A stretch of DNA of 64,000 bases, from NCBI GenBank assembly GCA_022823235.1, contig JAJDXO010000049.1:1-64000 (forward strand), given 5' to 3'. The position numbers and the translations under genes are program-made. The notes below the pieces were generated by a model that was given only the letters and a program-made list of their open reading frames with translations, did not search any database and was not told the origin of the DNA. Positions 38,509-57,108 of this stretch are shown here, in pieces (positions within the stretch are counted from its first letter, which is position 1; every line of letters starts with the position of its first letter). This DNA comes from Rhodospirillales bacterium (GTDB taxonomy: Bacteria; Pseudomonadota; Alphaproteobacteria; Rhodospirillales; UBA2165).

Positions 38509-38573
38509 ACCGTCATGTTATCCGCCCGATCCGGCGCTTGCTACCGCCCCGCCCATAGGCTATCCCCCGCGCC

Positions 38574-40393
<1,820 letters not shown>

Positions 40394-40394
<1 letters not shown>

Positions 40395-40822
40395 TGGAGG
40401 CGCGGGTCAAATGGGTGGAGCAGCGGACGTTCCTGGGCGAGAGCGGCTCCGGCCACTCCGTGGTGATGGACGGCGCGCCGGACGCCGGCGGGCGCGACCT
40501 GGGCGTGCGCCCCATGGAGATGCTGCTGCTCGGCATGGGCGGCTGCACGGCATTCGACGTCGTCGAAATTCTTCAGAAAGGCCGGGAACCGGTGGAAGAC
40601 GTGGTGATCGAACTTTCAGGGGAACGATCCGAGGAGATTCCCAAGGTATTCACCAGGATCGACGTCAAATACATCATCACCGGCAAGGGGTTGAACCCGG
40701 ACAAGGTCGAGCGGGCGGTCCATCTGTCAGCCGGCAAATATTGTTCGGCGACCATCATGATGGGCGCCACCGCCGAGATCACCCACACCATCGAGATCGT
40801 CGAGAGCGAGCGCTCTCGCTAA
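40394..40822 (+). CDS. OsmC-family protein
   Basis: 142 residues of the OsmC/Ohr superfamily. The conserved MEMLLLGMGGCTAFDVVEIL and YCSATIMMGATAEITHTIEI hold the two redox cysteines (Cys40 and Cys117) that reduce organic hydroperoxides. This branch is the YhfA-like group. It starts within the stop of typA and ends exactly where the convergent TPR gene stops, so there is no space between them. Confidence 0.88.
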
Positions 40823-41679
40823 TCACGGTGTGGCCTGATTTTCAGCCTCTTGAGACCGGCTATAGGCTTCTTGCGCCTCCTCGGTGCGACTCAAAATAGC
40901 CAGAGCGTCTCCCCGCAATCGATGGATCTTGGCGGCGCTCTCCGTGGGGTTCAGCCGTAGAGTCATATCGAAATCGAATAGCGCGTCCTCGGCGCGATTG
41001 AGTGCCAGAAGGACCTCCCCCCGGCAAGCCAGACATCTCTGTTGGCAGGATCATTTGTCACGATCAGGTTGAACTCCCGGAGCGCCCTCCTACGATGGCC
41101 CATGGAATTGAAGACTAAACCCCGGATATATCTGGCACTCAAATAACCTGGATGGCTCTGAGGAACTCGGGCGGTGGCGGCAAGCGCCTCCTCATATCTG
41201 CGCAGAGCCATTAGTGCCGCCGCCCGTACAAACGAAATTGATCCGACGAGGTCTCGGTCTCCCAGGCTGAGAGCCTTGTCGGAATCGGCAAGGGCTTTTT
41301 CCCATTCCTTCAGAGACAGATGGTTCATCCCACGCGCGGCATGGGTCGCCGCTATGCTCGGATCAATTCCGATGGCTTCCGTCAAATCGTCGACGGCTCC
41401 CCGATAATCACCATTATTTTCCCGAATCTCCGCCCGGGTAACATAAGCGTCATGCCGTTCGCCGGGAGTGGCCCCACTCTCGATCACCGCCGTCGCGTCG
41501 GCGGAAATCTCGGCCTGTGATCTGTCGTCACTGAGCCAGACATGGACCGCGGCGAGACCAATGACAAACGCTAACGTTAGGACAAACAGGCCGGTGCCGA
41601 TTAGCGCGCAGCCCCATGGCCCGATCTGGAACCCGGGCTTCTTCTCCGGTGCTTCGGTACCTGCGCCGTTATCCGCCAC
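40823..41679 (-). pseudogene. Membrane-anchored TPR protein with a frameshift
   Basis: The frame from 41679 gives an N-terminal helix (GPWGCALIGTGLFVLTLAFV, about 21-40) and TPR units (ADATAVIESGATPGERHDAY; YRGAVDDLTEAIGIDPSIAA; YEEALAATARVPQSHPG). After NRDVWLAGG it degenerates. Shifting frame at the C6 run on the plus strand (41017-41022) restores the TPR pattern EVLLALNRAEDALFDFDMTL, RLNPTESAAKIHRLRGDALA and ILSRTEEAQEAYSRSQ, ending at TGA 40825-40823. One G seems missing, giving 857 nt instead of 858. Real mutation or homopolymer sequencing error cannot be told apart. It overlaps the chorismate mutase gene by 11 nt. Confidence 0.8.
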
Positions 41680-41962
41680 TCTTGATCTTTTCGTGGTCGC
41701 GGATCACTTCGGCGATGATGAATTCGAGAATTTTCTCCGAGAAGTCGGGATCCAGATTTGCCGCCTTGGCGAGATCGCGGAGCCGCGCGATTTGCTCCGC
41801 CTCGCGCTCCCTGTCGGCGGCCGGATAGTCTCGCTCCGCCTTCAACTCGCCCACTTTCTTGGTGACCTTGAACCGCTCGGACAGCAGATAAATCAGCGCC
41901 GCATCGATGTTGTCGATGCTGTCCCGGAATTCCTGAAGCTGGGGATCGTTGGTTTCGGCCAT
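41669..41962 (-). CDS. Chorismate mutase, AroQ type
   Basis: 97 residues: MAETNDPQLQEFRDSIDNID followed by AALIYLLSERFKVTKKVGEL, the all-helical AroQ core. Active-site residues of the family are visible as Arg in LSERFKVTKKVGELK, the lysine of KKVGELK and the downstream RLRDLAKAANLDPDFSEKIL. It converts chorismate to prephenate for Phe and Tyr. The start at 41962 leaves the normal family length. It overlaps the TPR gene start by 11 nt, so the two form an operon. Confidence 0.88.
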   Translation of the reverse strand: MAETNDPQLQEFRDSIDNIDAALIYLLSERFKVTKKVGELKAERDYPAADREREAEQIARLRDLAKAANLDPDFSEKILEFIIAEVIRDHEKIKSGG

Positions 41963-42066
41963 GTCGCGGTCCAGTCTCGTCAATTGCGCCGACATCATAG
42001 GGAGGACACACCCATTCGTCACGGGTAGCCGTTTGCTCGGCCCGGCTTTGGCGCTATACCGGTTGC

Positions 42067-42531
42067 ATGGCCGAGAAAGACAATCCCGGGGTCGTCCTGC
42101 CGCCGGCGCTGATCTGGGCGCTGTTCGTTGCTGCGGGCGTGGGGCTGAACCTCGCCTGGCCCCTGCCCTTCCTGCCGGCGGCATGGCTCAACCCCCTCTT
42201 CTGGACGTTGATCGCGATCGCCGCCGCGCTCGGGTGGTGGGGGAGAATCTCCTTGCGCCGGCACGGCACGGCCGTCATACCCTATCGGCCCTCCACCATG
42301 ATCGTGGAGACGGGCCCCTACCGATTTACCCGAAATCCCATGTATACGGGGCAGGCTCTCGCCGTCCTGGCGATCGCCGCCCGGTTCGACAATTTGTGGC
42401 TCGTGATCCTGCTCGCCGCCTGGTTTCCGGTGATGCATTACGGCGTTATCGCCCGCGAGGAGCGCTATCTGGAAGCCAAGTTCGGTGAGGTCTACACCGG
42501 ATACAAGGCCCGGGTCCGCCGCTGGATTTAG
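42067..42531 (+). CDS. Isoprenylcysteine carboxyl methyltransferase-like membrane protein
   Basis: 154 residues with three or four membrane helices (ALIWALFVAAGVGLNLAWPL; PLFWTLIAIAAALGWWG). The ICMT/PEMT signature is RFTRNPMYTGQALAVLAIAA with ARE-E-RYLEAKFGEVYTGYK near the C-terminus, the SAM-binding part of the family. Such bacterial proteins methylate unknown lipids or thiols. The start is ATG 42067. It is on the opposite strand to the chorismate mutase operon. Substrate not assignable. Confidence 0.87.
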   Translation: MAEKDNPGVVLPPALIWALFVAAGVGLNLAWPLPFLPAAWLNPLFWTLIAIAAALGWWGRISLRRHGTAVIPYRPSTMIVETGPYRFTRNPMYTGQALAVLAIAARFDNLWLVILLAAWFPVMHYGVIAREERYLEAKFGEVYTGYKARVRRWI

Positions 42532-42534
42532 AAC

Positions 42535-42783
42535 TCAGGCCGCGAACAGTTCCCGAATGATCGGGACCGCCTCGGCGCCGTATTCCTCGAGCGCTCCTCC
42601 GATTTCGGCCAGCAGCTTGTCCATCGCTTTGACGGCGGCCCTGAATGGTTCCGAGTGCACGCCCTTTTCGTGAACCTGCCGCTGGCGTTCGGCGACGGTG
42701 TCCACAAGGACATGCCGAAAAGCCTCGCCAAGGACCTGCTCTTCGGCAGCAGAATCAGTCCCGATATCGGGACTGAAATAACC
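42535..42783 (-). pseudogene. Truncated small ORF before the tetR palindromes
   Basis: An 83-codon open frame ends TGA 42537-42535 and begins after a TAG inside the palindrome at 42782. Its core (EEQVLGEAFRHVLVDTVAER, then KAMDKLLAEIGGALEEYGAE) has coding-like composition and amphipathic helices, but no ATG is present before a late one. GTG 42705-42703 is a possible start for a 56-residue product. I recognise no family. It is convergent with the ICMT-like gene. A 5'-truncated gene is my preferred reading. Confidence 0.4.
42755..42776. promoter_or_regulatory. Perfect 22-bp palindrome, candidate TetR operator
   Basis: TCAGTCCCGAT is followed directly by its exact reverse complement ATCGGGACTGA with no spacer. 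It lies six bases from the larger inverted repeat and about 60 nt upstream of the tetR ATG. TetR family operators are usually palindromes of this size. Confidence 0.6.
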
Positions 42784-42829
42784 CTACCATAAAAAAAATC
42801 ATTTATGAATGATTTTTTTTATGGTAGGG
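42782..42829. promoter_or_regulatory. 48-bp inverted repeat with 22-bp perfect arms next to the tetR start
   Basis: CCCTACCATAAAAAAAATCA-TT (42782-42803) and its exact reverse complement (42808-42829) are separated by TATG. The arm core AATCATT/AATGATT is AT-rich and the outer part GC-rich. The right arm ends 7 nt before the tetR ATG, so a protein bound here, or an RNA hairpin, would block tetR translation or transcription. It may also be a strong promoter-operator for both sides. Confidence 0.7.
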
Positions 42830-42836
42830 TGAACGG

Positions 42837-43481
42837 ATGTCGACTTTGAGATCAGCTGAGACTCTGATCGACAACGAGACCAGCCGGCAGGCCCAAAAGA
42901 GCGCCGCCACCCGCCAAAAGCTGATTGATGCCGCGGTGGATCTCGTTGTCGAGAATGGGTTCGCAACCATCACGACGGCCCAGGTTGCGGAACGCGCCGG
43001 CTTATCCAGGGGCGCGATGCAGTATCATTTTTCGACCCGATCCGACATGTTGCTCGCGGTTATCGACGAGGTGTGGACCCGCACGAATATATCGTTTGGC
43101 GCCCAATATCCTGAAAGTTCCTCGTTCGAAGAGCGCGTGGACCTGATTGTCGACCGATACCGGGTCTCATTTAACGACCACCTCTTCTCCGCGGTTTTGG
43201 AAGTTTTTCATGGCTCGCGCGAGGACCCGGTTCTGTTTGAACGCGTTAGCCGGAGACTCCTTGAAATTCTCGGTGAACGTGCCCAGAGGTGGGAGAATTT
43301 ATTTGCCGATCTCGATTTGCCGGCAGACCGGGTCCGGCTGGCTCACGACATTCTTCGTTCGACAATTCGCGGGCTGGCGCTCCGCCGCATTTTTGGAGAA
43401 CCAGGTCATTCGGCCATCACCCAAGACGAAGCCGACACGGTCGGGAAGATGGTCAAAGCAATTCTGAAGGATGAGTTGTAG
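42837..43481 (+). CDS. TetR-family transcriptional regulator
   Basis: 214 residues. The N-terminal HTH is classic: ATRQKLIDAAVDLVVENGFA, then TITTAQVAERAGLSRGAMQY, then HFSTRSDMLLAVIDEVWTRT (about 21-80). The C-terminal ligand-binding part is predicted all helical. The start is ATG 42837, 7 nt after the end of a large palindrome. It precedes the PhyH/MetE-like/FAD-monooxygenase genes on the same strand and probably controls them. The palindromes at 42755 and 42782 are the likely binding sites. Confidence 0.9.
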   Translation: MSTLRSAETLIDNETSRQAQKSAATRQKLIDAAVDLVVENGFATITTAQVAERAGLSRGAMQYHFSTRSDMLLAVIDEVWTRTNISFGAQYPESSSFEERVDLIVDRYRVSFNDHLFSAVLEVFHGSREDPVLFERVSRRLLEILGERAQRWENLFADLDLPADRVRLAHDILRSTIRGLALRRIFGEPGHSAITQDEADTVGKMVKAILKDEL

Positions 43482-43528
43482 CCGTCAGCGCTCACTAATT
43501 TTGCTGTTGCAAGAAGGAAGAGGACGAT

Positions 43529-43642
43529 TTGAGCGACAAACCGCTGCTGGTGGGGAACATCCCCCTCGATACGCTTGAAGAGGTTTTGAGAATCGAAATT
43601 AATGGATTGCGGAATACTGGACTGAGGAGGAAAGCCCGATGA
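43529..43642 (+). pseudogene. Remnant of a MetE-like gene start (37 codons)
   Basis: TTG 43529 begins MSDKPLLVGNIPLDTLEEVL, closely matching the start of the gene at 44611 (MTDKLLLVGSIPLDTPEEVF), including the DNA-level GGTGGGGA-CATCCCCCTCGATACG stretch. It then diverges (RIEINGLRNTGLRRKAR) and stops at TGA 43640-43642, overlapping the PhyH ATG (ATGA). The rest of the gene has been lost. It could now serve as a translated leader for PhyH. Confidence 0.75.
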
Positions 43643-44487
43643 ACGAAGATCTTTTGTCACCCATCACCGACGAACAGCGCGCCGACTATGAGCGAGACGG
43701 CGTTGTCTGTATTCGCAACCAGTTCGACGGCGAATGGATCGACCGGATGAGGATTGCCTGCGAGCACGATATGGCGGCGTCGGAAGGCCGCGTAACCGAG
43801 GTCGTAAATGAGGACGGCGACGCAACTTTTTATTCCAAAGTGTTCATGTGGCGCGATGACGACGATTTTAAGGACTACGTCTTCAACTCGCCGGCGGCGC
43901 GCATCGCCGCCGAGCTGATGGGCATCGACGCGGTCCGGTTCTACTATGATCAATTGTTCATCAAGACACCCGGCGCCTCGGCGCCGACTCCCTGGCATCA
44001 CGATTTGCCCTACTGGCCGTTTCGCGGCAACCACATAGCCTCCGTATGGCTGGCACTGACCCCCGTAACCCAGGAATCCAGCGGCGTGGTATACCTCGCA
44101 GGTTCCCATAAATGGGGCAAATTCTACCGCGCCACGACGATAGACGAGGACCCCCGGCTCACCGACCCCGATTTGGAAGTCTGCCCGGACTTCCATCGGG
44201 AATTCGACAATCCCGACTACACGTTCCTGAGCTGGGATATGGAGCCCGGCGACGTGCTGGTTCACCATCCGCTCACCGTCCACGGCTCCGGCGCCAATCG
44301 ATCATCCACTCAGGGCCGTATCGGTCTGTCGGTCCGGTATATGGGCGGCGATGCCGTCTGGGATCCGCGCCAATACGTGATGATCGTCGAAGGCAGCGAA
44401 CACCTGGAAGCCGGGAAGTTCCCGGCAGACGATACCGTTTTCCCCCCGGCCTGGAGCCGGACGATGAACGAAGAAGGCCGAATATGA
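43639..44487 (+). CDS. PhyH-family Fe(II)/2-oxoglutarate dioxygenase
   Basis: 282 residues of the phytanoyl-CoA dioxygenase family. The Fe-binding triad is visible: His and Asp in TPWHHDLPYWPF (about 116-122) and the distal His in HHPLTVHGSGANRSS (about 213-227), with the 2-oxoglutarate Arg nearby (RSSTQGRIGLSVRYMGGD). It hydroxylates an aliphatic or acyl substrate, unidentified. Preceded by AGGAGGAAAG as Shine-Dalgarno. It is the first intact structural gene of the TetR cluster, followed by a MetE-like and an FAD-monooxygenase gene; together they suggest an oxidative route for an O- or S-substituted compound. Confidence 0.9.
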   Translation: MNEDLLSPITDEQRADYERDGVVCIRNQFDGEWIDRMRIACEHDMAASEGRVTEVVNEDGDATFYSKVFMWRDDDDFKDYVFNSPAARIAAELMGIDAVRFYYDQLFIKTPGASAPTPWHHDLPYWPFRGNHIASVWLALTPVTQESSGVVYLAGSHKWGKFYRATTIDEDPRLTDPDLEVCPDFHREFDNPDYTFLSWDMEPGDVLVHHPLTVHGSGANRSSTQGRIGLSVRYMGGDAVWDPRQYVMIVEGSEHLEAGKFPADDTVFPPAWSRTMNEEGRI

Positions 44488-44540
44488 GTATTTCACGCAC
44501 TGTATTGCTTGCCGGCGGCAACGGCGCCGCTCGAACATGA
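44484..44540 (+). pseudogene. 18-codon remnant overlapping the PhyH stop
   Basis: ATG 44484, sharing ATGA with the PhyH stop, encodes MSISRTVLLAGGNGAART and stops at 44538-44540. The hydrophobic, glycine-rich start resembles the beginning of a nucleotide-binding fold (VLLAGGNG) cut short. It may be chance or a lost gene, similar to the other two truncated starts in this cluster. Confidence 0.35.
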
Positions 44541-44610
44541 GGCAAGCAAGGCAACCAACAATTCAAGGACGCCCGGTTAAACTAGGCCCGATTAAACTAG
44601 GAAGGACGAT

Positions 44611-45732
44611 ATGACCGACAAACTGCTGCTGGTGGGGAGCATCCCCCTCGATACGCCGGAAGAGGTGTTTCGCACTTTCGGCCCGACCATCGGCGATTCG
44701 CTCGCCTATATGCCCGACGGCGAGGTCGGCGAGCGCCGGTATTGGATCAACTTCCTGGCCAAGAACGTCCTGAACGGTCATCCGCAACTGGAAACGGTGC
44801 AACGGCCGGAGCCGGACGAACACGGGCCCGACACATGGCGCCCTGTGGGCACCCATGACCATTTCAAGTTCAGGGTGGCGGCCGGCGTCGATCGCGTGCA
44901 ATTCGGCGATCCCGGCTGGCGGCTTGGCTATGCGCGGGACGCCATCAACTCGTATTTCGTATTCAAACAAATGAAAAAAGATCAGGTGATTCCGGATGAC
45001 GTCCGGTTCCAGGTCTGCGTGCCCCTGACCTACAGCGCGCTCGGCCTCTTTTTCTCAGATGACGACGATCTATTGAGGGTAGCGCCCGGCATCACCACAG
45101 CGCTGAAGGACGAGATGGCGAACATCGCCGCTCATATTCCCGCCGACGACCTCGCCGTTCAATGGGATCTGGCCGTCGAAAACCGGCGGATTCAGATGCA
45201 CCTGGACGCGGGAGACGTGGACGCGGCGCGGAACGAGGCAGCCATCGTTGCGGACCCCCTGGCGGAGGCGTGTTCCGGTTTGCCCGAGACTGTCCATGTC
45301 GGCTTGCATTCCTGTTACGGCACCGTCGACGGGTGGCCGGGCCGCCAGCCCGCCGATATCACCGGCACCGTCCTGTTGCTGAACGCGATGACCCGGGCCG
45401 CGGGACGGCGCATCGAATTTCTGCATTTTCCGACCATTGCCGCAGCGGACGATAGCTTTTTCGGTCCCCTGGACACATTGGAGGTAGACGGCGCGCGGGT
45501 CTATGTCGGCGCCATCCATCATATGCACGGGACCGATGGCCTGAGGACGCAACTCGAGACGGTGAAAAGGTACCTCCCCGAATTCGGGCTGGCGGCGCCC
45601 TGCGGCTTCGGCCGCGTGCCCGAACGGCCGGGGCGCATGTTGACCGAAGAAGGCGATACCGCCCCGCCCGACTACATGCGGATCATCCTCGACGACCACC
45701 AAAATGCGGTCGAGTTGTTGGACAGCCTCTGA
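44611..45732 (+). CDS. MetE/UROD-superfamily-like protein
   Basis: 373 residues. The start (MTDKLLLVGSIPLDTPEEVF) and LAYMPDGEVGERRYWINFLA belong to a family distantly related to cobalamin-independent methionine synthase. The putative zinc site follows the MetE pattern: H233-S-C235 (VHVGLHSCYG) and a C-terminal C331 in LAAPCGFGRVPE; VQWDLAVE resembles the MetE strand IQxDEP. I infer a methyl- or alkyl-transfer role; the substrate is unknown. Shine-Dalgarno AGGAAGGA precedes ATG. Two truncated copies of its start flank the cluster, at 43529 and 47389. Its end overlaps the open frame of the monooxygenase but not its likely GTG start. Confidence 0.75.
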   Translation: MTDKLLLVGSIPLDTPEEVFRTFGPTIGDSLAYMPDGEVGERRYWINFLAKNVLNGHPQLETVQRPEPDEHGPDTWRPVGTHDHFKFRVAAGVDRVQFGDPGWRLGYARDAINSYFVFKQMKKDQVIPDDVRFQVCVPLTYSALGLFFSDDDDLLRVAPGITTALKDEMANIAAHIPADDLAVQWDLAVENRRIQMHLDAGDVDAARNEAAIVADPLAEACSGLPETVHVGLHSCYGTVDGWPGRQPADITGTVLLLNAMTRAAGRRIEFLHFPTIAAADDSFFGPLDTLEVDGARVYVGAIHHMHGTDGLRTQLETVKRYLPEFGLAAPCGFGRVPERPGRMLTEEGDTAPPDYMRIILDDHQNAVELLDSL

Positions 45733-45757
45733 GCGGACCAATCGACGGAGCGAACAA

Positions 45758-47368
45758 GTGGATACATCGGTCCTGATCGCCGGCGGCGGGCCGGTGGGCC
45801 TCACCCTGGCCCTCACCTTCGCCCGGTTCGGCATCGGCTGCATGGTGGTCGAGCGCGCCGCGGACACCACCCGGCATCCCAAGATGGACATCACCAACGG
45901 CCGCTCCATGGAGATCTTCCGCATGCTCGGCGTGGCGGACGCCATCTACGCCGCCGCGGTTCCGGACGACATCTGCCACGATGTAAGTTGGGTAAGCTCC
46001 CTCGTGGGCCATGAGATTTACCGCTTCGAATATCCGGGCCCCCGCGAGGCTCGTGACATCTACCGGCGCACCAATGACGGCACCCAGGCTATGGAGCCCG
46101 ACGTCCGTATCTCTCAGATCCTGGTCGAGCCTCTGCTCCGGGATGCGGCCATGGCGTCGCCTCACGTGGCCATCCGATATGGCTGCGAGTTCCTGGAATT
46201 CGAACAGGACGACCAAGGGGTCACCGGCCGGGTCAAGAACGCGGACACAGGTGAAACAGAGGAAATCCGGGCGCGATACCTGGCCGGATGCGACGGCGGC
46301 AACAGCCGGGTGCGGGATCAAATGGGTATCGGACTCTCCGGCGATGCCAACATCCGGACCCGTTACTCCATCCACTTCGTTTCCGAGGATAGAGCCACGT
46401 TCGAGCCCTGGGGGCCGGCCTGGCACTACCAGTCACCGATCCACGGCACCCTGGTCGCCCAGGACGGCATCGAGCGCTACACCCTGCATTCCTACCTGGA
46501 CGACGGGGAGAGCCCGGAGACGGTCGATCCCTACGACAAAGTGAGAGCATTCGTCGGCACGGATTTCCGTTTCGAGCTTTTGCGGGCGCTCAACTGGCAG
46601 AACAATTTACTGCTTGCCGATGGCTACCGGGACGGGCGCGTGCTGCTCGCCGGCGACGCCGTCCATCAATACATCCCGACCGGCGGCTACGGCATGAATA
46701 CGGGCGTCGGGGACGCCTTCGATTTGGGCTGGAAGCTCTCCGCCGTTATCCAGGGCTGGGGCGGCGCGCGGCTCCTGGACAGCGTCCGGGAAGAACGCCA
46801 GCCCGTTGCCCGGCGCAACCGGGAAGGCTCCAAGCGCCACGCCGAAGCGCGGATCGCCATCGGCCAGGTCTGGCCCGATAATCTCGACGATGAGGGTCGC
46901 GGCGGTGATGCGGCCCGCGCGGAACTCGCGAAGAAGATCGAGCAGATCGGCAACGCCGAAAACGAAAGCCGGGGTATCGAGCTCGGCTACGGCTACGCCG
47001 GCTCGTCCATCGTCTGCAACGAAGCGGGTGACGAAACCCAGGACGATCCTCTGCGCTACGTCCCGACGACTACACCCGGCTACCGGCCACCGGCACTCTA
47101 TCTGGAGGATGGCACGCCTATCTTCGACAGGTTCGGCGCCGGGTTCACGCTTCTCGATTTTGGCGAAAAAGGTAGTGATGCATTCCAGGCCGAAGCCGCA
47201 ACCCAGGGCATCCCGCTGCAAACTGCCAGCATCCAGGACGATCACCACGCCCGCGCCCTTTACGGCCGCGGCCTGGTGCTTGTCCGTCCCGACCAACATG
47301 TGGCCTGGCGGGGCGACGCGCCTCCGGACGACCCCGGAGCCATCCTGCGGCGGGTCTCGGGGAATTGA
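45758..47368 (+). CDS. FAD-dependent monooxygenase, PheA/TfdB type
   Basis: 536 residues from GTG 45758, giving the Rossmann start VDTSVLIAGGGPVGLTLALT, with FAD-binding Glu in GCMVVERAAD. The second FAD motif is GRVLLAGDAVHQYIPTGGYG with the GD and a C-terminal thioredoxin-like domain (about 440-536, ending PDDPGAILRRVSGN). These enzymes hydroxylate phenols and other aromatics with NADPH. ACGGAGCG upstream is a plausible Shine-Dalgarno; the frame opens 18 codons earlier inside the preceding gene. It is the last intact enzyme of the TetR cluster, followed by a truncated MetE-like start. Confidence 0.88.
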   Translation: MDTSVLIAGGGPVGLTLALTFARFGIGCMVVERAADTTRHPKMDITNGRSMEIFRMLGVADAIYAAAVPDDICHDVSWVSSLVGHEIYRFEYPGPREARDIYRRTNDGTQAMEPDVRISQILVEPLLRDAAMASPHVAIRYGCEFLEFEQDDQGVTGRVKNADTGETEEIRARYLAGCDGGNSRVRDQMGIGLSGDANIRTRYSIHFVSEDRATFEPWGPAWHYQSPIHGTLVAQDGIERYTLHSYLDDGESPETVDPYDKVRAFVGTDFRFELLRALNWQNNLLLADGYRDGRVLLAGDAVHQYIPTGGYGMNTGVGDAFDLGWKLSAVIQGWGGARLLDSVREERQPVARRNREGSKRHAEARIAIGQVWPDNLDDEGRGGDAARAELAKKIEQIGNAENESRGIELGYGYAGSSIVCNEAGDETQDDPLRYVPTTTPGYRPPALYLEDGTPIFDRFGAGFTLLDFGEKGSDAFQAEAATQGIPLQTASIQDDHHARALYGRGLVLVRPDQHVAWRGDAPPDDPGAILRRVSGN

Positions 47369-47388
47369 CTAGGTAAGGGGAGGGAGAC

Positions 47389-47481
47389 ATGTCCGATCCT
47401 CGCAATATCCACTTTGTCGGCAGCCTTGGCATGGCCGGCGTCGAGACCGCTTTTCGGACCTTGGCCGAACAGGCCGACTGA
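47389..47481 (+). pseudogene. Second remnant of a MetE-like gene start (30 codons)
   Basis: ATG 47389, with the Shine-Dalgarno GGGGAGGGAG, encodes MSDPRNIHFVGSLGMAGVET and AFRTLAEQAD, then stops. VGS-x(5)-ETAFRTL parallels VGSIPLDTPEEVFRTF of the intact gene at 44611, though DNA similarity is weaker than for the copy at 43529. The perfect ribosome-binding site suggests a once-functional gene whose body was deleted. Confidence 0.55.
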
Positions 47482-47627
47482 AAACCCTGATACAGCTCGA
47501 TCATCCCCCCCCTCCCAAAAACCGGGCAGGCTCACTTTGACCGCAGCCCGCCCCCCGTCATCAAATCACCGCTGGCAATACGGCGCAGGTGTGATATCAC
47601 CCGCGCCCCATCCCGAGGGCATTGGTC

Positions 47628-49004
47628 ATGGAGCAGACGGCGGCGCGGCCGGAACGGCTGGACGACCCGCCCCGCAGCTTGCGGGCGCGGGTTCGAGAGA
47701 TGGTGCGCCTGGCCCTGCCGCAGATCGCATCGCGATCCGGCATGCTGATCATGGCGGTGGTCGATACGGCCATGGTCGGCCGGTTCGCCGCCCACGAGCT
47801 GGCCTACCAGTCCCTCGGCAACGCGGTGACCATTCCCCTGTTCGTGACGGCCATCGGACTTCTCCTCGGCACCCTGGTGATGACCGCCAGGACCCTCGGC
47901 AGCGGCCGGACCGACAGGCTTGGCGCGGTCTGGCGCCGGGCGACGGTCTATGCGGTTGGGCTCGGCGCCATCTGCATGGTCATCGCGTTCACAGGCGAGT
48001 GGGTGCTGGTGGTCACCGGCCAATCGGCGGACCTGGTGCGGGGCGGCGGCGAAGTGGTCCGCGTGCTGGCCCTGGGCCTGCCGTTCATGATGATCTATCT
48101 CGCCAGCGCCTACTTTCTCGAAGGGCTGAAGCGGCCGGTCGCGCCGATGGTGTTCATGATCATCGCCAATCTGTTCAACGTGCTGTTCAACTGGATGTGG
48201 GTCTATGGAAATCTCGGGTTCGACGCCATGGGCGCTGTCGGGTCGGCGTGGGCGACGACCGGCATCCGCATCCTGCTGGCCGCCGTCACCGTCGCCTATG
48301 TGTGGAACCTGCATGACCGCGACGCGCTCGGCATCCGCAGGAAGGCGGGGGGCGGCTGGCGGGACTGGGCACTCCAGCGCCGCATCGGCTATTCGGCCGG
48401 CGGCAGCCACCTCATCGAATCCACCGCCTTCGCCGCCCAGTCCTTCATCGCCGGGCTGTTGGGGGCGTTGGCGCTCGCCGCCTACTCCATCGCCTTTCAG
48501 GTGTTGGGGCTGATCTTCATGACCGCCATCGGCATCGGTGCGGCGAGCGCGGTGATGGTCGGGCACGCCTGGGGACGAGGCGACACCGCCGAGATGTCCC
48601 GGGCGGGCTGGACGGGCCTCGGGCTCAACACCATCGCCATGGGCTTCTTCGGGGTGCTGGTAGTCGCGTTCTCGCCTTATTTGGCGCAAGGGTTCGCCAA
48701 GGACCCGGCGTTGATCGAACTCGCCACGCCGCTGATCGCCTTCATCCCGTTGCTGCTGATCTTCGACGGCGGCCAGGCGGTTCTCGGCCACGTTCTGCGG
48801 GGCCGGGGCGAAACCTGGTTTCCGGTAGCCGCCCACACAATCTCCTACGGCGCGATCCTGCTGCCGCTCGCCATCGTCCTGGCGCTGCCGATGGGCCGCG
48901 GCGTCATGGGAATCCTGGAAGCGATCCTCATCGCATCGGTGATTTCGCTCTGCCTCCTCGCCTGGCGGTTTCACCGGCTCGCCAAGCGGGATCAACGCGG
49001 CTGA
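47628..49004 (+). CDS. MATE-family efflux transporter
   Basis: 458 residues with twelve predicted helices in two bundles. MATE features are visible: RALPQIASRSG-type opening (REMVRLALPQIASRSGMLIM), VDTAMVGRFAAHELAYQSLG, and the second-half counterpart LAAYSIAFQVLGLIFMTAIG with IGAASAVMVGHAWGRGD. Antiporters of this family export cationic drugs or metabolites using Na+ or H+. ATG 47628 is preferred to TTG 47622. It sits just after the oxygenase cluster on the same strand and could export a product or substrate analogue. Confidence 0.92.
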   Translation: MEQTAARPERLDDPPRSLRARVREMVRLALPQIASRSGMLIMAVVDTAMVGRFAAHELAYQSLGNAVTIPLFVTAIGLLLGTLVMTARTLGSGRTDRLGAVWRRATVYAVGLGAICMVIAFTGEWVLVVTGQSADLVRGGGEVVRVLALGLPFMMIYLASAYFLEGLKRPVAPMVFMIIANLFNVLFNWMWVYGNLGFDAMGAVGSAWATTGIRILLAAVTVAYVWNLHDRDALGIRRKAGGGWRDWALQRRIGYSAGGSHLIESTAFAAQSFIAGLLGALALAAYSIAFQVLGLIFMTAIGIGAASAVMVGHAWGRGDTAEMSRAGWTGLGLNTIAMGFFGVLVVAFSPYLAQGFAKDPALIELATPLIAFIPLLLIFDGGQAVLGHVLRGRGETWFPVAAHTISYGAILLPLAIVLALPMGRGVMGILEAILIASVISLCLLAWRFHRLAKRDQRG

Positions 49005-49165
49005 AATCCACGGAAACCGGAGCTACAAATCATCAAGAAGACCGCCGACGATCTAAACGCGACATAAAATCGGTCCAATTTCTAAAGCTGGTTGCGAGAT
49101 TGCCAGCGTTTGCGGACAATAGCTATCCCGTAACTCCGCGCAGATGAGACATTGGAGTTCTACCG

Positions 49166-50377
49166 ATGGGTGTCGAAGGCTTCATTCTATTTACTGCCGT
49201 GTTCGTGGCGGCAGGATTCGTCATGTGGATCTTCCAACTCTACAACGAAGCACGAAAGTACCGAGAACTAAGGCCTGAGCTGGACACTGTCCGCAACAGA
49301 ACTGCGGAACTCGATCAGAAAACGATCACACTGGAGAAGGACAGAGATGAGTTCAAAAAAAATGTGGATGCCCACTGGCAAGGAATGGAAGCGATAGCAG
49401 CGGAGAAAACGATTGGTTTTCCATGGCTCGCCGGCGCGTATGCGGACTATTTTGAGTTGTTGGACAGAAAGGAAGCACGGTACCTAGAACAGAAGAAGCA
49501 TCCGGCAAAAAAAGCAGCCGAGCATGTTCGTGAGGCAGCCGCCCGTCGCAGAAAGGCCGAACATCGCGCCAAAACAAATGAGTACATCGTCAGCTACTAT
49601 GAATCACTTTTTCCCTGGCTATCCGAATTCCGGGAGGAAGAATCTGACGAGCTAATCGAATCCAACGTTTCTTCGGATGCGGGCGCGGATGATGCAGCAA
49701 GGCAATTCTTGACTGCGTCCGAATACGAAAAACTCTCCAACACGGAAAAATACCAACTTGCCCTAGATCGCTACAGTTCACGGAGAAAATCGAAATGGGC
49801 GATTGGTAGGGATTACGAACGCTACGTTGGGTACCTCTACGAATCACGGGGGTACGATGTCGAATACAAGGGCATCCTAGACTCTTTTGAAGACATGGGC
49901 CGCGACATAGTTGCCAGACGGTCTGACGACACACTCATCGTTCAATGCAAATGTTGGTCGAGATCCAAGATTATTCACGAGAAGCACATATTCCAACTAT
50001 TCGGGACGACGATCGAGTTTTGTCACGATCACCAGCTGCCCTCCGATCTTCCACAACAGCCCAATCTTTTGGATTGGAGGTCGGCCTGGAACAATGTTCG
50101 GCCGATTTTTATCACCACGACCGAATTGTCAGATAAGGCAAGGCGGATCGCCCAAACCTTGAATGTCGAGGTAATCGAGAACGAACCGTTTGAAGAATGG
50201 CCGATGATCAAATGCAATTTATCCTCAACAGGTGAGAGGATTTACCACTTGCCCTTCGATCAACAATATGACCGAGTGATGATTGAAGCTCTTAAACAGG
50301 AGTTTTTTGCTTGGACAATCGCCGAAGCCGAAGCTGCCGGCTACAGAAGGGCCTTCAGGTGGCGCGACAAAACCTAA
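49166..50377 (+). CDS. Membrane-anchored Mrr-like restriction endonuclease-fold protein
   Basis: 403 residues. An N-terminal helix (GFILFTAVFVAAGFVMWIFQ, about 5-24) is followed by a long charged coiled coil (about 28-75, RTAELDQKTITLEKDRDEFK). The C-terminal half holds an Mrr-type fold: YERYVGYLYESRGYDVEYKG, then DMGRDIVARRSDDTLIVQCK-CW, where D and the QCK lysine form the D-x(n)-QxK catalytic signature. Base composition is clearly lower in GC than its neighbours, with A/T-rich codons, which suggests transfer. Similar anchored nucleases are suspected defence proteins. No methyltransferase or other partner is adjacent. Confidence 0.82.
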   Translation: MGVEGFILFTAVFVAAGFVMWIFQLYNEARKYRELRPELDTVRNRTAELDQKTITLEKDRDEFKKNVDAHWQGMEAIAAEKTIGFPWLAGAYADYFELLDRKEARYLEQKKHPAKKAAEHVREAAARRRKAEHRAKTNEYIVSYYESLFPWLSEFREEESDELIESNVSSDAGADDAARQFLTASEYEKLSNTEKYQLALDRYSSRRKSKWAIGRDYERYVGYLYESRGYDVEYKGILDSFEDMGRDIVARRSDDTLIVQCKCWSRSKIIHEKHIFQLFGTTIEFCHDHQLPSDLPQQPNLLDWRSAWNNVRPIFITTTELSDKARRIAQTLNVEVIENEPFEEWPMIKCNLSSTGERIYHLPFDQQYDRVMIEALKQEFFAWTIAEAEAAGYRRAFRWRDKT

Positions 50378-50413
50378 GCCCCGCCAATACAACCAAACCC
50401 TAGCTTTGGTCGC

Positions 50414-50761
50414 TTACCCCGACGCGCAGTCGACGCACAGCGGCACGGCGGGATCGCCGGCCAGGCGTTTCTCTTCGATGTCCTCGCCGCAGGCAACGCA
50501 GTAGCCGTATTCGCCCTCGTCGATGCGCTTGAGGGCGGCGTCGATGCGCTGGATTTCGATCTCGCGCCGGCGTTCCTGTTCGAGGGCCATCTCGTGTACC
50601 TGCAGCGCGTCCATCCGGGACAACCGGCCCTGGGTCTGTTGATCCAGCTCGACGGGCTTGCGGTCGTCCACGGTGATCTCTTCCAGATGCTCGATTTCGG
50701 CCCGGGCATCCAGAAGCTGCTTCCTGACCTTTTTCAGGTCCGCTGCTTTGAGTGCGGGCAT
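50414..50761 (-). CDS. DksA/TraR-type zinc-finger protein
   Basis: 115 residues. A long N-terminal helix pair (LKKVRKQLLDARAEIEHLEE; QGRLSRMDALQVHEMALEQE) ends in a zinc finger C88-x2-C91...C109-x2-C112 (YCVACGED, CVDCASG). DksA-type proteins enter the RNA polymerase secondary channel with ppGpp. This is the short, YbiI/TraR-like class; the DxxDxA tip motif of DksA is not obvious, so its activity may differ. It is convergent with the nuclease gene. The true start is ATG 50761. Confidence 0.88.
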   Translation of the reverse strand: MPALKAADLKKVRKQLLDARAEIEHLEEITVDDRKPVELDQQTQGRLSRMDALQVHEMALEQERRREIEIQRIDAALKRIDEGEYGYCVACGEDIEEKRLAGDPAVPLCVDCASG

Positions 50762-50892
50762 AACGGTTCGATTCTAGAGCAGTTTTTACCATCTTGCCAA
50801 ATCCTGACACATAAATGACGGGAATTGCCAATCACATGGCCGGCGAGATAGGGTATAACCTATTGTAAAATATATATTTTAGGGAAACGATC

Positions 50893-52137
50893 ATGACGGC
50901 GGGCGCGGACAATCGGGGGACCCCCCGGAGGACTCCCCAGAGGATTCCCAAGGCGGGCAACCCGCTCGAAGTCTTCCTGATCTTTTTGCGTCTCGGCCTG
51001 ACGTCATTCGGCGGACCGGTGGCTCATCTCGGCTATTTCCGCACCGAATTCGTCGAGAGGCAAAAGTGGCTCAGCGACGCGGCCTACGCCGATCTGGTGG
51101 CGCTGTGCCAGTTCCTCCCCGGCCCCGCCTCCAGCCAGGTGGGGATCGGCATCGGTCTGTCGCGGGCCGGGCTCCCGGGCAGCCTCGCCGCCTGGCTCGG
51201 CTTCACCACCCCATCGGCCCTCGCCATGGCGGCCATCGGATTGGGCGCGGTGGCGTTCCAGGACAATCTCACCCAGGATATCCTGAAGATGCTGATGCTG
51301 GTGGCCGTCGCCGTGGTCGCCAACGCGGTGTGGGGCATGGCGCGCATGCTGTGCACCGACGGCACCCGGGCGGCCATCGCCGTCGCCGCCACCGTGGTGC
51401 TGCTCATGGTCCCTTCCACATCCATCCAATTGGCGGTCATCGCGGGCGGCGCGGTGCTGGGGCTCGTCCTGGTCAAGGCGCGGGAATCCGAAGAGGAGGA
51501 TGCCTTCGAGATCCCGGTGGGACGCGGGATTGCCGTCTTCTGCCTGATCGCGTTCTTCGTGCTGCTCGCCGGCCTGCCGGTGGCGGCAATCCGGTTCCCG
51601 GACCAGGCGCTGATCCTGTTCGACAGCTTCTACCGCTCGGGCTCGCTGGTGTTCGGCGGCGGCCATGTGGTCCTGCCGTTGCTGCAGGAAGAAGTGGTGC
51701 CGCCCGGCTGGGTCGCCCCGGATGCGTTCCTCGCCGGTTACGGCGCGGCGCAGGCCATGCCGGGCCCGCTGTTCACATTTGCCTCGTACCTGGGCGCGGT
51801 GAGCCAGGTGCCGCCGACCGCCTGGACGGGCGCGCTGATCGCCACCATCGCCATATTCGTTCCGTCGTTCCTGCTGGTGATCGGGACGCTGCCGTTCTGG
51901 GACGGCCTGCGCCGGGTCGGAAGCGTCCGCCGGGCCCTCGCCGGGGTGAACGCCGCGGTGGTCGGACTGCTGCTCGCCGCGCTTTACGATCCGGTCATCA
52001 CCAGCGCGGTGGCGAACAATGCCGATGTCGCGGCGGCGCTGGTGTTGTTTTTGCTCATCGCCGTCTGGAAGGTGCCGCCGTGGCTGGTGGTGGCCGGCGC
52101 GGCGGTCTACGGCGCCGGGCTCGGCTTTGTGCTCTAG
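50893..52137 (+). CDS. chrA: Chromate transporter ChrA
   Basis: 414 residues with two homologous CHR halves, about twelve membrane helices. The first half starts EVFLIFLRLGLTSFGGPVAH and includes FLPGPASSQVGIGIGLSRAG. The second includes FYRSGSLVFGGGHVVLPLLQ and GYGAAQAMPGPLFTFASYLG. The long form exports chromate by proton exchange. The N-terminus is rich in Arg, Thr and Pro (GTPRRTPQRIPKAGNPLE). ATG 50893 follows AGGGAAACG. No regulator is adjacent; the upstream 130 bases include an AT-rich patch (AATATATATTTT) probably holding its promoter. Confidence 0.95.
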   Translation: MTAGADNRGTPRRTPQRIPKAGNPLEVFLIFLRLGLTSFGGPVAHLGYFRTEFVERQKWLSDAAYADLVALCQFLPGPASSQVGIGIGLSRAGLPGSLAAWLGFTTPSALAMAAIGLGAVAFQDNLTQDILKMLMLVAVAVVANAVWGMARMLCTDGTRAAIAVAATVVLLMVPSTSIQLAVIAGGAVLGLVLVKARESEEEDAFEIPVGRGIAVFCLIAFFVLLAGLPVAAIRFPDQALILFDSFYRSGSLVFGGGHVVLPLLQEEVVPPGWVAPDAFLAGYGAAQAMPGPLFTFASYLGAVSQVPPTAWTGALIATIAIFVPSFLLVIGTLPFWDGLRRVGSVRRALAGVNAAVVGLLLAALYDPVITSAVANNADVAAALVLFLLIAVWKVPPWLVVAGAAVYGAGLGFVL

Positions 52138-52138
52138 T

Positions 52139-52663
52139 TCACGGCGCCGGATCGGCGTCGATCAGCACGAAGGCGATCCGGCACGGCTCGTCATAGCGGT
52201 TGGCCCACGCGTGGTTGGTGCCCCGCTGAACCACCACGTCGCCGGCCTGCACGGTCATGTCCTCATCGTCCAACAGCAGATCGACCTTTCCCGACATGAT
52301 CACCGCATAGTCGATGCTGTCGGTCTTGTGCATGCCGGGATGACGCGCATCGGCCGGGGTCGTGGCGCCCTTGCCGGCGAGAAGCTCCGTCTCGGCACTA
52401 ACGTCCGCGTCGGGGCCGCTCTCCGGCGGGAACTCGACGATGCGAAACACCGAGCCGCCGGCCGGCGGCGGAATCGGCATTTTGTCTCCCGCCGTCTCCC
52501 GATCGCCGGAATTATCCGCCGGCGTCCGGTCGGTGGCCCAAAGTTCGGCGAGCCGGATTCCGCCTTTTTCGGCGACATTGACCGGCGGCGCGCCATCGGA
52601 GACGGCGATTGCCCGTCCACCTGAATCGTGGCCGGTGACGATCCGGCGAATGTCCATTGTCAT
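52139..52663 (-). CDS. Cupin-domain protein
   Basis: 174 residues, single cupin barrel in the C-terminal half. The first cupin motif is degenerate (MHKTDSIDYAVIMSGKVDLL), with G(x)5HxH reduced to a His-rich start; the second is GDVVVQRGTNHAWANRYDEP with one clear His. The N-terminal region (about 1-100) resembles the DUF-like extension of small cupins near aromatic catabolism genes. It may be a metal enzyme or a storage-type fold. ATG 52663 overlaps the PEP-mutase gene stop, so both are co-translated. Confidence 0.83.
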   Translation of the reverse strand: MTMDIRRIVTGHDSGGRAIAVSDGAPPVNVAEKGGIRLAELWATDRTPADNSGDRETAGDKMPIPPPAGGSVFRIVEFPPESGPDADVSAETELLAGKGATTPADARHPGMHKTDSIDYAVIMSGKVDLLLDDEDMTVQAGDVVVQRGTNHAWANRYDEPCRIAFVLIDADPAP

Positions 52664-53505
52664 GACTTGTCCCCTCTGTTCATTGCATAGAGCCGGTTGA
52701 GTTCCGGGTGCGGAATGGCGCCGTCGAGGAAGCCGAAGGTCCCGTCGTCCCTGAGTTCGGCCAGCACCCGGCGCAGGTAGCCGAAAGCCCCGCGGGTGAG
52801 GCCGCCCGCGACCGATACGCGGGCGACGCCGAGGGCCGCCAGACCGGCCACATCGAGACCGCCCGCGCCGGCCGGCACGTTGAGCGGCCCGTCGATGGCC
52901 TTGGCGAGGCCGCCGATGGCGTCCGCATCCGTCACCCCGATCACATAGGCGCAGTCGGCCCCGGCGGCGAGATAGGCGTTGGCACGCTCGACGGCGATGT
53001 CGAATTTCTCGCCGGGCTCCCGGATATTGCCGAAATAGATATCGGTCCGCGCGTTGATCACCATGGGGATTCCGGTCTCGTCGGCGGCCGCCCGGGCGGC
53101 GGCAATCCGGTCCACCGCGAGGCCCTTCTCCAGGATTTCACCCGAATGTTCGATGCCGTCCTCCAGATTGAGTCCAACCGCGCCGGCGTCGGCGGTCAGC
53201 CTCACGGTGTCGGCGACAATTCCGGGCGCCTCGCCGTAGCCGGTTTCCATATCCGCGGTAACCGGAATGTCGACCGCCGAGGCGCAGGCCCTGACGGCGT
53301 TCAGCATGTCGTCGCGGGAAATCACTTCGCCGTCCGGCAGACCGTGGGCCCAGGCGACCCCGGCGCTGGTGGTGGCGATGGCCTCGAACCCGGCCTCGGC
53401 CGCCAGCACCGACGTCCCCGCATCCCAGATGTTGGGCAGCACCAGCGGCGCGTCGCCGCCATGCCGGGCCCGCAGCGCCTGGGCCTTGGATACCTGATCC
53501 CTCAT
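52660..53505 (-). CDS. Isocitrate lyase/PEP mutase family protein
   Basis: 281 residues from MRDQVSKAQALRARHGGDAP. The barrel signatures are PLVLPNIWDAGTSVLAAEAG, VDIPVTADMETGYGEAPGIV and AVGLNLEDGIEHSGEILEKG, where acidic residues bind Mg2+ and the substrate. There is no KKCGH lyase motif, so it is of the PEP mutase/oxaloacetase-like type rather than isocitrate lyase. Its stop overlaps the cupin ATG. The function may be cleavage of a 2-oxo or phosphono acid; unproven. Confidence 0.88.
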   Translation of the reverse strand: MRDQVSKAQALRARHGGDAPLVLPNIWDAGTSVLAAEAGFEAIATTSAGVAWAHGLPDGEVISRDDMLNAVRACASAVDIPVTADMETGYGEAPGIVADTVRLTADAGAVGLNLEDGIEHSGEILEKGLAVDRIAAARAAADETGIPMVINARTDIYFGNIREPGEKFDIAVERANAYLAAGADCAYVIGVTDADAIGGLAKAIDGPLNVPAGAGGLDVAGLAALGVARVSVAGGLTRGAFGYLRRVLAELRDDGTFGFLDGAIPHPELNRLYAMNRGDKS

Positions 53506-53602
53506 ATCGTCCTCCCTGGATCGCACCTGAGCTTAGCCCCGGAACGATGGTGGGGAAAAGCTTGGGAATCGCGTAGCGGGCGAATCGTGCTATAGGCGGC
53601 GC

Positions 53603-54295
53603 ATGAAGGAAACCGAGCTTTATCCGCCCATCAAGGCGTTTCTCGAGGCCCAGGGCTACGAGGTCAAGGCCGAGGTCGGCGATTGCGACGTGCTGGCGGT
53701 GCGGGGCGGCGAAGAGCCGGTGGTGGTCGAGCTCAAGACCGGATTCACCCTGCCGCTGGTGTTCCAGGGCATCCGCCGCCAGACCGTCTCGGAGACCGTC
53801 TACCTCGCCGTTCCCGCCCAAACCGGGAGCGGCAAGTCGGTCTGGCGGGGACGCTATCGGGACATCACGAAGCTCTGCCGGATGCTGGGGCTCGGGTTGC
53901 TGACGGTCGCGTTCAGGAAGTCCGGCGCCGTGGTCGAGGTGCACCTGGATCCCGCCCCCTATGCGCCTAAGAAATACAAGCCCCGTCAATCCCGGCTGCT
54001 GAAGGAACATGCGCGGCGGGTCGGCGATCCCAATTCGGGCGGCAGCACCGGCACGCCCATCATCACCGCCTACCGGCAGGATGCGTTGAGATGCGCCCGG
54101 TACCTCCTGGATCACGGCCCGGCGAAGGCCTATGTCATCCATCAGGCGACCGGCGTCGCGCGCGCCCGGCGCATCCTCTACAGCGACCATTACGGCTGGT
54201 TCGAGCGCGTGGACCGGGGGATTTACCGGCTGACGCCCGCGGGCGAGCATGCCCTCGAACGGTTCGCCGGACAATTCGCCGAAGCCGCCGAATAA
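53603..54295 (+). CDS. DUF2161 PD-(D/E)xK-like phosphodiesterase-type protein
   Basis: 230 residues. The N-terminal half is a nuclease-like fold: LYPPIKAFLEAQGYEVKAEV, GDCDVLAVRGGEEPVVVELK, where CDV and ELK form a D...ExK site. The C-terminal half (SGGSTGTPIITAYRQDALRC onwards) resembles a winged-helix module (GWFERVDRGIYRLTPAGEHA). DUF2161 is annotated as putative PD-(D/E)XK phosphodiesterase; the biological role is unknown. It is diverged from the PEP mutase gene by about 100 nt. Confidence 0.85.
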   Translation: MKETELYPPIKAFLEAQGYEVKAEVGDCDVLAVRGGEEPVVVELKTGFTLPLVFQGIRRQTVSETVYLAVPAQTGSGKSVWRGRYRDITKLCRMLGLGLLTVAFRKSGAVVEVHLDPAPYAPKKYKPRQSRLLKEHARRVGDPNSGGSTGTPIITAYRQDALRCARYLLDHGPAKAYVIHQATGVARARRILYSDHYGWFERVDRGIYRLTPAGEHALERFAGQFAEAAE

Positions 54296-54371
54296 TCGGT
54301 TTTGACCATCGGGGCGCGCCCGCCTATGAAGACGGCAGCCCAGCCGCATCACCAATACCAGGGGAATATCG

Positions 54372-54674
54372 ATGGCCAATCTGATCAATCTCGTCACCAT
54401 GTCCTACGATGAGGACATCCTCGATGAAGCGCTGCGTCTGCTGATGATCAATGCGCGGGCGGCGCGCGAAGAGGAAGGCTGCCTGCAGTTCGACGTGGTC
54501 CGACAGCAGGGCACCGGGACCGAGTTCATTTTGTACGAGGTCTACAAGGACGAGGCGGCCCTCGACATCCACAAGACCTACGATCACTTCAAGAACTATT
54601 TCGAGTTCATCTTGAGCCAGGGCGACAAGGTCCGGCGGAAGGCTGTACTCTACGACCCGTACGAGGGCGAGTAG
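54372..54674 (+). CDS. Antibiotic biosynthesis monooxygenase (ABM) domain protein
   Basis: 100 residues. The ABM ferredoxin-like fold is marked by MANLINLVTMSYDEDILDEA, AREEEGCLQFDVVRQQGTGT and EFILYEVYKDEAALDIHKTY. Family members oxidise quinols or degrade haem, or act in quorum-signal turnover. It is followed after 25 nt by a RidA-family gene, so the two are likely co-transcribed. No haem-specific residues are seen. Confidence 0.88.
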   Translation: MANLINLVTMSYDEDILDEALRLLMINARAAREEEGCLQFDVVRQQGTGTEFILYEVYKDEAALDIHKTYDHFKNYFEFILSQGDKVRRKAVLYDPYEGE

Positions 54675-54699
54675 GCGCCCGGCATCCAGGGAGAAAATC

Positions 54700-55107
54700 A
54701 TGTCAGGAAACGCAACGCTCGGCCGCCCGGCACTGGAGGGCATGAGACAACCGCCCCATTTCTCAAATGTGGTGGTCAGCGAGGGCGGCAAGCTGGCTCA
54801 TATTTCGGGCCAGATGGGAACCGACGGCGGCCGGTTGGCCGGCGAAGGGGATCTCGCCGCCCAGTTCGCGCAAACCTTCGCCAATTTGCGGAAAATCCTC
54901 GACGGGCTTGGCGCCACCCCCGACGACGTCGTCCGACAGCGGATCTTCGTCGTCGATCTCGAGCCGGCCCACCGGGATATCGTCGTCGCGGCGATGAACG
55001 ATTTCTATGGCGAGGGCAAGCCGGCGAGCACCCTGATCGGCTGTCAGGGCCTGATCATCCCCGGCGCCCTGGTGGAAATCGACCTCACGGCGGCCATCGA
55101 CGGATAA
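54700..55107 (+). CDS. RidA-family (YjgF/YER057c) deaminase-like protein
   Basis: 135 residues. Opening similarity to Rid proteins is PHFSNVVVSEGGKLAHISGQ, with QFAQTFANLRKILDGLGATP and GKPASTLIGCQGLIIPGALV-EIDLTA near the end. The arginine that marks true RidA imine deaminases appears shifted: the C-terminal stretch reads CQGLIIPGALVEID rather than R-x-x-V. It may therefore belong to a Rid subgroup without canonical activity. It is downstream of an ABM gene. Confidence 0.85.
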   Translation: MSGNATLGRPALEGMRQPPHFSNVVVSEGGKLAHISGQMGTDGGRLAGEGDLAAQFAQTFANLRKILDGLGATPDDVVRQRIFVVDLEPAHRDIVVAAMNDFYGEGKPASTLIGCQGLIIPGALVEIDLTAAIDG

Positions 55108-55110
55108 TCC

Positions 55111-57063: not shown

Positions 57064-57108
57064 GGCCGTCCTGCCCACCCGGACCCGTAGGAGAGAGAGT
57101 ACCTGGAA

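What the first reader, a model, noticed from the sequence alone, without database searches (positions are those of the whole stretch)
43529..47481. TetR-PhyH-MetE-like-FAD monooxygenase cluster with truncated gene starts
The same MetE-like gene start occurs three times (43529, 44611, 47389), but only one is followed by a full gene. The two others are cut to 37 and 30 codons and keep ribosome-binding sites; a further 18-codon remnant sits after phyH. This looks like repeated duplication and loss inside an operon, or leader peptides that set translation of the next genes.
Basis: partly seen in the sequence, partly recalled or inferred. Interest (0 to 1): 0.58.

Follow-up and report, generated by a model that had tools for sequence, protein, structure and literature searches.

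The report
Decaying gene-start relics in acquired islet
Two very short gene beginnings in this bacterial gene cluster are most likely worn-down leftovers of methionine-synthase-like genes in a small stretch of DNA that a close relative lacks; they are real but ordinary, and nothing points to a regulatory job.

Summary
The frames at 43529 (37 codons, TTG) and 47389 (30 codons) exist, and 43521-43587 repeats the start of the full MetE-like gene (44603-44669) at 90% over 67 bp. The 47389 piece is not the same start: it comes from another MetE-like subfamily (closest own-genome gene 78% over 23 aa). The 18-codon frame after phyH has no detectable relative outside its own locus. Same-genus genomes decide most of the rest. 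In G002 the 43529 piece is frameshifted and 13% diverged, more than third codon positions nearby (5-9%), and all but about four codons of the 47389 piece are deleted. In G001 the whole 5.5-kb stretch 42045-47541 is absent, its neighbours joined directly. Neither fragment region folds better than shuffles. Best reading: relics of gene duplication, loss and truncation inside a genus-limited islet; leader peptides are unlikely. The full gene is a core-MetE-like protein by fold (Z 22.1 to 3RPD, a MesD) though no Pfam family matches it meaningfully. Ordinary finding; low interest.

The parts
42045..47541 (.). About 5.5-kb stretch absent from same-genus G001 (islet)
   Evidence: G001:C53 joins window 42044 to 47542 with a 9-bp overlap in one contig; present, in two contigs with a 12-kb inversion, in G002
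42067..42531 (+). Small membrane methyltransferase-like ORF (154 aa; label recalled), left edge of the stretch
   Evidence: the ORF listing; 87% identical in G002
42781..42830 (.). Perfect inverted repeat, 23-nt arms, before tetR; candidate operator or hairpin
42837..43481 (+). TetR-family regulator
   Evidence: TetR_N E 5.5e-11; 97% in G002
43521..43587 (+). Relic: copy of the MetE-like gene start (8 nt upstream plus about 20 codons)
   Evidence: 67-nt repeat, 90%; frameshifted in G002, 9 of 67 positions differ
43529..43642 (+). 37-codon frame carrying that relic, stop overlapping the phyH start
   Evidence: frame not conserved in G002
43639..44487 (+). PhyH-family dioxygenase gene
   Evidence: PhyH E 1.7e-35
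44484..44540 (+). 18-codon frame, origin unknown
   Evidence: 1 change in 57 nt in G002; no other relatives
44611..45732 (+). Intact MetE-like (core methionine-synthase fold) gene, 373 aa
   Evidence: model pLDDT 87.7; VIA-align Z 22.1 to 3RPD
45758..47368 (+). FAD-dependent monooxygenase gene (GTG start chosen by eye; the listed ORF starts at 45704)
   Evidence: FAD_binding_3 E 5.3e-77, Rng_hyd_C E 1.9e-12; NCBIfam PRK06126 E 7.1e-167
47389..47481 (+). Relic: 30-codon start of a MetE-like gene of another subfamily
   Evidence: 78% over 23 aa to G000:C45; all but about 4 codons deleted in G002

Best explanation
The cluster lies in a roughly 5.5-kb stretch held by this genome and G002 but not by G001, probably acquired by the genus (or lost in G001). 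Within it two MetE-like gene starts are non-functional relics. The 43529 piece is a partial copy of the neighbouring MetE-like gene's start, left by deletion of a tandem copy or by a partial duplication; which of the two is not shown. The 47389 piece is the cut-off start of a different MetE-like gene that once followed the FAD monooxygenase, about 60 bp inside the right edge of the stretch. Neither appears to work: both are decaying. The intact genes (regulator, PhyH, MetE-like, FAD monooxygenase) are under purifying selection where tested and probably form one oxidative or methyl-transfer operon. Shown: repeat, decay, empty site. Inferred: direction of gain or loss, mechanism of truncation, operon function.
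For: 67-nt repeat at 90%. Between G000 and G002 the first relic differs at 9 of 67 positions (13.4%, one a deletion) and shifts frame, against third-position divergence of 5.0-8.8% in the four genes, and dS 0.077-0.119 with dN 0.012-0.014 for TetR, PhyH and MetE residues 1-263. The third fragment is lost in G002: homology breaks at 47399 and resumes at 47552. Empty site in G001: 41700-42044 followed by 47542-48998 on one contig. The own genome holds 10 MetE-like matches without internal stops, the window's included, and neighbouring pairs exist, for example G000:C23 28831 and 29871 and L154, where a 72% relative is followed by a second MetE-like gene and then by FAD-monooxygenase and PhyH genes. 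Short N-terminal-only matches are rare: 4 of 85 rows at E up to 0.01 in 24 family genomes have an open frame under 100 aa.
Against: Only one genome (G002) shares the locus, so the decay rests on one comparison of 67 bp; 243 of 4,313 overlapping windows in the cluster differ at least as much (this includes windows overlapping the relic and a divergent patch in the FAD gene). In both genomes the first frame still ends within about 16 nt of the phyH start, so termination-reinitiation is not excluded. No genome with a full MetE-like gene at either relic position was found: 10 of 10 other phyH relatives at 50% identity or more lie on contigs with no MetE-like match (searches compared). No intact parent of the third fragment turned up among 385 class genomes beyond the G000:C45-like genes.
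Confidence: 0.85

Rival explanations
1. The 43529 frame is a leader peptide, or a coupling frame whose peptide does not matter, that delivers ribosomes to phyH.
For: Start codon TTG, a purine-rich upstream stretch and a stop overlapping the phyH ATG in G000; in G002 the shifted frame still ends at a TGA next to the phyH ribosome-binding site.
Against: Peptide and frame are not conserved; no RNA fold beyond shuffles (z 0.62 in G000 and -0.88 in G002); phyH has its own AGGAGG; the ATGA overlap depends on one frame in three and is gone in G002.
Confidence: 0.08
2. The 67-bp repeat came from insertion of the phyH segment into an older tetR-metE-like operon, duplicating the gene start, not from loss of a tandem copy. 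This is a variant of the best explanation (still a relic), differing only in mechanism, so its confidence overlaps with it.
For: The two copies flank exactly the phyH unit, spacing 1082; the closest relatives of the MetE-like protein (L154-L156) and of PhyH lie in other neighbourhoods.
Against: No genome with the pre-insertion order was found; neighbouring MetE-like pairs elsewhere suit tandem loss equally well.
Confidence: 0.35
3. Assembly or sequencing errors split full genes.
For: The genomes compared are drafts in many contigs.
Against: A separate assembly, G002, shows the same first relic with no room for a full gene; the sequence right after the relic is the phyH leader, shared by both.
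Confidence: 0.02

Closest known systems
Gene remnants (truncated paralogues) within acquired genomic islets
   Same: Short, decaying pieces of paralogous genes; site empty in a close relative
   Different: Nothing essential; two start fragments of one superfamily in one cluster is a modest curiosity
Leader-peptide or translationally coupled small upstream frames
   Same: Short frame with ribosome-binding-like site and stop overlapping the next start
   Different: Frame and peptide not conserved, no structured leader, third fragment not ahead of a co-regulated gene
Core methionine synthases (MesA-MesD, PMC7857596; start of abstract and passages seen)
   Same: Single catalytic MetE-type fold without the folate domain; top structural match 3RPD, named as MesD in that paper; H-x-C and a later C invariant
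   Different: No meaningful Pfam or NCBIfam match; an invariant His (H272) and a D/E (position 269) lie where a third zinc ligand could be, against the Glu/Asp of HCEC/HCDC; no gene of the DUF1852 (MesX) family among the cluster's proteins scanned with Pfam

Membership tests
Gene relic / pseudogene fragment | Significant similarity to a functional paralogue | tested here: met
   First piece 90% over 67 nt; third piece 78% over 23 aa
Gene relic / pseudogene fragment | Loss of coding constraint | tested here: met
   Frameshift and 13.4% divergence of the first; deletion of most of the third in G002. One genome pair only
Leader peptide / coupled upstream frame | Conserved open frame ahead of the regulated gene | tested here: not met
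   First frame shifted, third mostly deleted in G002
Leader peptide / coupled upstream frame | Structured RNA leader (needed for attenuation only) | tested here: not met
   z 0.62, -0.88, -0.65
Leader peptide / coupled upstream frame | Translation of the short frame affects the next gene | not testable with these tools
   Needs an experiment
Core methionine synthase (MesA-D-like), for the intact gene | MetE C-terminal-domain fold | tested here: met
   VIA-align Z 22.1 to 3RPD, rmsd 3.5 over 290 residues; Foldseek E 2.5e-6 to 1u1h
Core methionine synthase (MesA-D-like), for the intact gene | Zinc ligands HCEC or HCDC | tested here: inconclusive
   H233, C235 and C331 in 22 of 22; position 269 is D in 18 and E in 4, position 272 is H in 22; no residue-level structural mapping was made
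Core methionine synthase (MesA-D-like), for the intact gene | Makes methionine from homocysteine | not testable with these tools
   Needs an experiment

The most novel reading that the evidence does not exclude
Solitary starts of about 20-28 codons from MetE-like genes are kept or generated recurrently (43529, 47389, and an unconnected 31-codon piece in another genus, G015:C129) because the ribosome-site-plus-start segment is useful, for example as a ready-made translation initiator that couples to the next gene whatever the peptide.
Probability: 0.05. Interest if true: 0.45.

Novelty: new member of a known kind. Interest (0 to 1): 0.18.

Why it matters
Mostly as a clean small example of an islet with a sequenced empty site and decaying paralogue fragments, and as a caution against reading short frames with ribosome-binding-like sites as leader peptides. 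The side observation, a multi-copy MetE-fold family (1-11 matches per genome in 24 of 24 family genomes, none in 36 other genomes of the order) that Pfam does not cover, may be worth more than the finding itself.

Tried and rejected
Tried: search for 3' ends of MetE-like genes in the intergenic stretches by permissive tblastn and blastn against held loci: only the start matches and chance-level rows. Tried: intact parent of the third fragment in 24 family genomes and 385 class genomes: only G000:C45-type and more distant genes, plus the lone truncated piece G015:C129:14872-14952 (63% aa, 82% over 72 nt). Its breakpoint differs: the third fragment's similarity to C45 runs about 10 nt beyond where the G015 similarity ends, and the first relic stops near codon 20, so the idea of one common truncation point was dropped. 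Tried: the 18-codon frame as the start of a dehydrogenase-like gene (recalled resemblance): no relative. Rfam on 41500-48500: one chance-level miRNA row on the palindrome (E 0.65). PDB sequence search with A3: none at E up to 1. Two literature searches (listings seen) gave one paper used here (PMC7857596: start of abstract and passages seen); no claim is made about absence from print.

Rows dropped: L021 was left out of alignment A2 because my coordinates gave stops (then 27). A4 holds the window and 21 of the 25 loci (L164, L171, L177, L178 left out). The gene caller resolved overlaps by length, so antisense frames hid some MetE-like genes (for example in L041-L044); absence of MetE-like neighbours near phyH relatives is therefore taken from contig names, not. 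A FAD dN/dS was not computed (skips it).

Full report
What is there. Between 42045 and 47541 lie a small membrane-methyltransferase-like ORF (42067-42531; label recalled), a TetR regulator (42837-43481), a PhyH dioxygenase (43639-44487), a MetE-like gene (44611-45732) and an FAD monooxygenase (45758-47368). The short frames of the finding are real: 37 codons at 43529, 18 at 44484 and 30 at 47389. 43521-43587 repeats 44603-44669 at 90% over 67 nt. In the own genome, searched with 43482-43660, that second place scores E 3.6e-19, so the repeat is not chance.

The three starts are not the same. The 47389 piece is no member of that repeat. Its nearest own-genome relative is the start of a full gene of another MetE-like subfamily, G000:C45 (78% over 23 aa, E 1e-6). 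The 18-codon frame finds only itself, its copy in G002 and a chance-level row in 24 family genomes; it may be nothing.

Decay, seen in a same-genus genome. G002 carries the locus on two contigs at about 95% identity. There the first relic has lost one base, so its frame ends after 31 codons at a different stop; 9 of 67 positions differ (13.4%), against 2.6-5.2% in TetR, PhyH, MetE residues 1-263 and FAD, and 5.0-8.8% at their third codon positions. dN/dS of TetR, PhyH and MetE residues 1-263 is 0.11-0.16, so those genes are constrained while the relic is not visibly so. Against this: the comparison is one pair and 67 bp, and 243 of 4,313 overlapping windows across the cluster differ at least as much, including windows that overlap the relic and a divergent patch in the FAD gene. 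The third fragment is gone in G002 beyond its first four codons: homology stops at 47399 and resumes at 47552. G002's MetE-like gene is broken by a contig gap between residues 263 and 293, so its completeness there is not shown.

Empty site. In G001, also the same genus, one contig runs from window 40811-42044 straight into 47542-48998, with 9 bp of overlap (GC-rich microhomology), and then into 50410-58868. The whole 5,497-bp stretch is thus absent, as is the 1.4-kb stretch 48999-50409 that holds a Mrr_cat nuclease gene (GC 0.495). The FAD monooxygenase of G001 (80% identity) sits elsewhere, followed by a GNAT gene. Gain in the G000/G002 lineage or loss in G001 cannot be told apart with three genomes; the stretch's GC is 0.613 against 0.637 (38525-42044), 0.677 (47542-48998) and 0.648 (50410-58868) around it, and lowest in TetR, 0.561. 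G002 also has the segment 42024-54074 inverted relative to the window, so the neighbourhood is fluid.

Origin of the relics. The own genome has 10 MetE-like matches, the window's included. Each of 24 genomes of the family, own included, has 1 to 11 matches to the full protein (some of them contig-end pieces or broken copies), and none of 36 genomes from other families of the order has one. Neighbouring pairs occur: G000:C23, G001:C36, G002:C118, G013:C1, and in L154 a 72% relative is followed by a second MetE-like gene, an FAD monooxygenase and, further on, a PhyH gene at 35%. Loss of a member of such an array would leave what is seen, but no intermediate was found: 10 of 10 other PhyH relatives at 50% identity or more lie on contigs without a MetE-like match (searches compared by contig name). 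Insertion of the phyH segment with duplication of the 67 bp is an equally simple path. In the N-terminal survey 4 of 85 rows at E up to 0.01 have an open frame under 100 aa, namely the first relic, G004:C12, G007:C56 and G021:C92, and G015:C129 has a lone 31-codon start resembling the third fragment. The breakpoints differ, so I do not read this as one recurring truncation point.

Leader peptides. The stop of the first frame overlaps the phyH start in G000 (ATGA), but in G002 the frame ends earlier, next to the phyH ribosome-binding site. Folding of the surrounding RNA is unremarkable (z 0.62 and -0.88; -0.65 at the third fragment). Peptide-independent coupling to phyH remains possible (about 8%).

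The intact MetE-like gene. Pfam gives no meaningful match to any of 10 members scanned in A3 or 4 further paralogues, and NCBIfam at best E 0.075 to a methionine synthase among 22 members. The AlphaFold model (pLDDT 87.7, pTM 0.88) matches MetE C-terminal domains and, first in the VIA-align list, 3RPD (Z 22.1, rmsd 3.5, 290 aligned; tied within 1 Z with several MetE entries). PMC7857596 names 3RPD as MesD and gives the zinc ligands as H-C-E/D-C (passages). Here H233, C235 and C331 are invariant in 22 of 22; H272 is also invariant, and position 269 is D in 18 and E in 4. Which of these would be the third ligand was not mapped. The 'MetE-like' label therefore holds by fold; methionine synthesis is untested. 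A plausible job, by inference only, is methyl or sulfur chemistry linked to the two neighbouring oxygen-using enzymes.

Verdict. Real but ordinary: decaying gene-start relics inside a genus-limited islet. The named same-genus records that could be matched are metagenome-assembled Rhodospirillales genomes (record titles).

Noticed in passing
42781-42830: Perfect inverted repeat (23-nt arms, 4-nt loop) just before the tetR start. G002 keeps it with A8/T8 shortened to A7/T7 on both arms; hairpin z -8.95 in G000 and -4.49 in G002. An arm pattern, up to 2 mismatches, matched exactly only this site in G002 among 24 family genomes (the G000 site itself was not hit, its A-run being one longer). Candidate TetR operator or hairpin; symmetry could also be kept by template switching.
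   Followed up: partly
42755-42776: Second palindrome, TCAGTCCCGATATCGGGACTGA, between the left ORF and the hairpin (read by eye; self-match).
   Followed up: no
48999-50409: Low-GC (0.495) stretch with a Mrr_cat nuclease gene (49166-50377), absent at this place from both same-genus genomes G001 and G002.
   Followed up: partly
44611-45732 and 9 further matches in the genome: A MetE-fold family with no meaningful Pfam match, 1-11 matches per genome in 24 of 24 family genomes, with invariant HxC, FxHxP and C in 22 of 22 aligned members; possibly an unnamed group of core methionine-synthase-like enzymes with a different third zinc ligand.
   Followed up: partly
46163-46280: Patch of the FAD monooxygenase gene with up to 27 differences in 67 bp between G000 and G002, against about 5% overall; possible recombination, compensating frameshifts or alignment error.
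   Followed up: no
42024-54074: About 12-kb segment inverted in G002 relative to the window and to G001.
   Followed up: partly
L134 5873-5953 (G015:C129, minus strand): Lone 31-codon MetE-like gene start after an arylsulfotransferase-like gene in another genus.
   Followed up: partly
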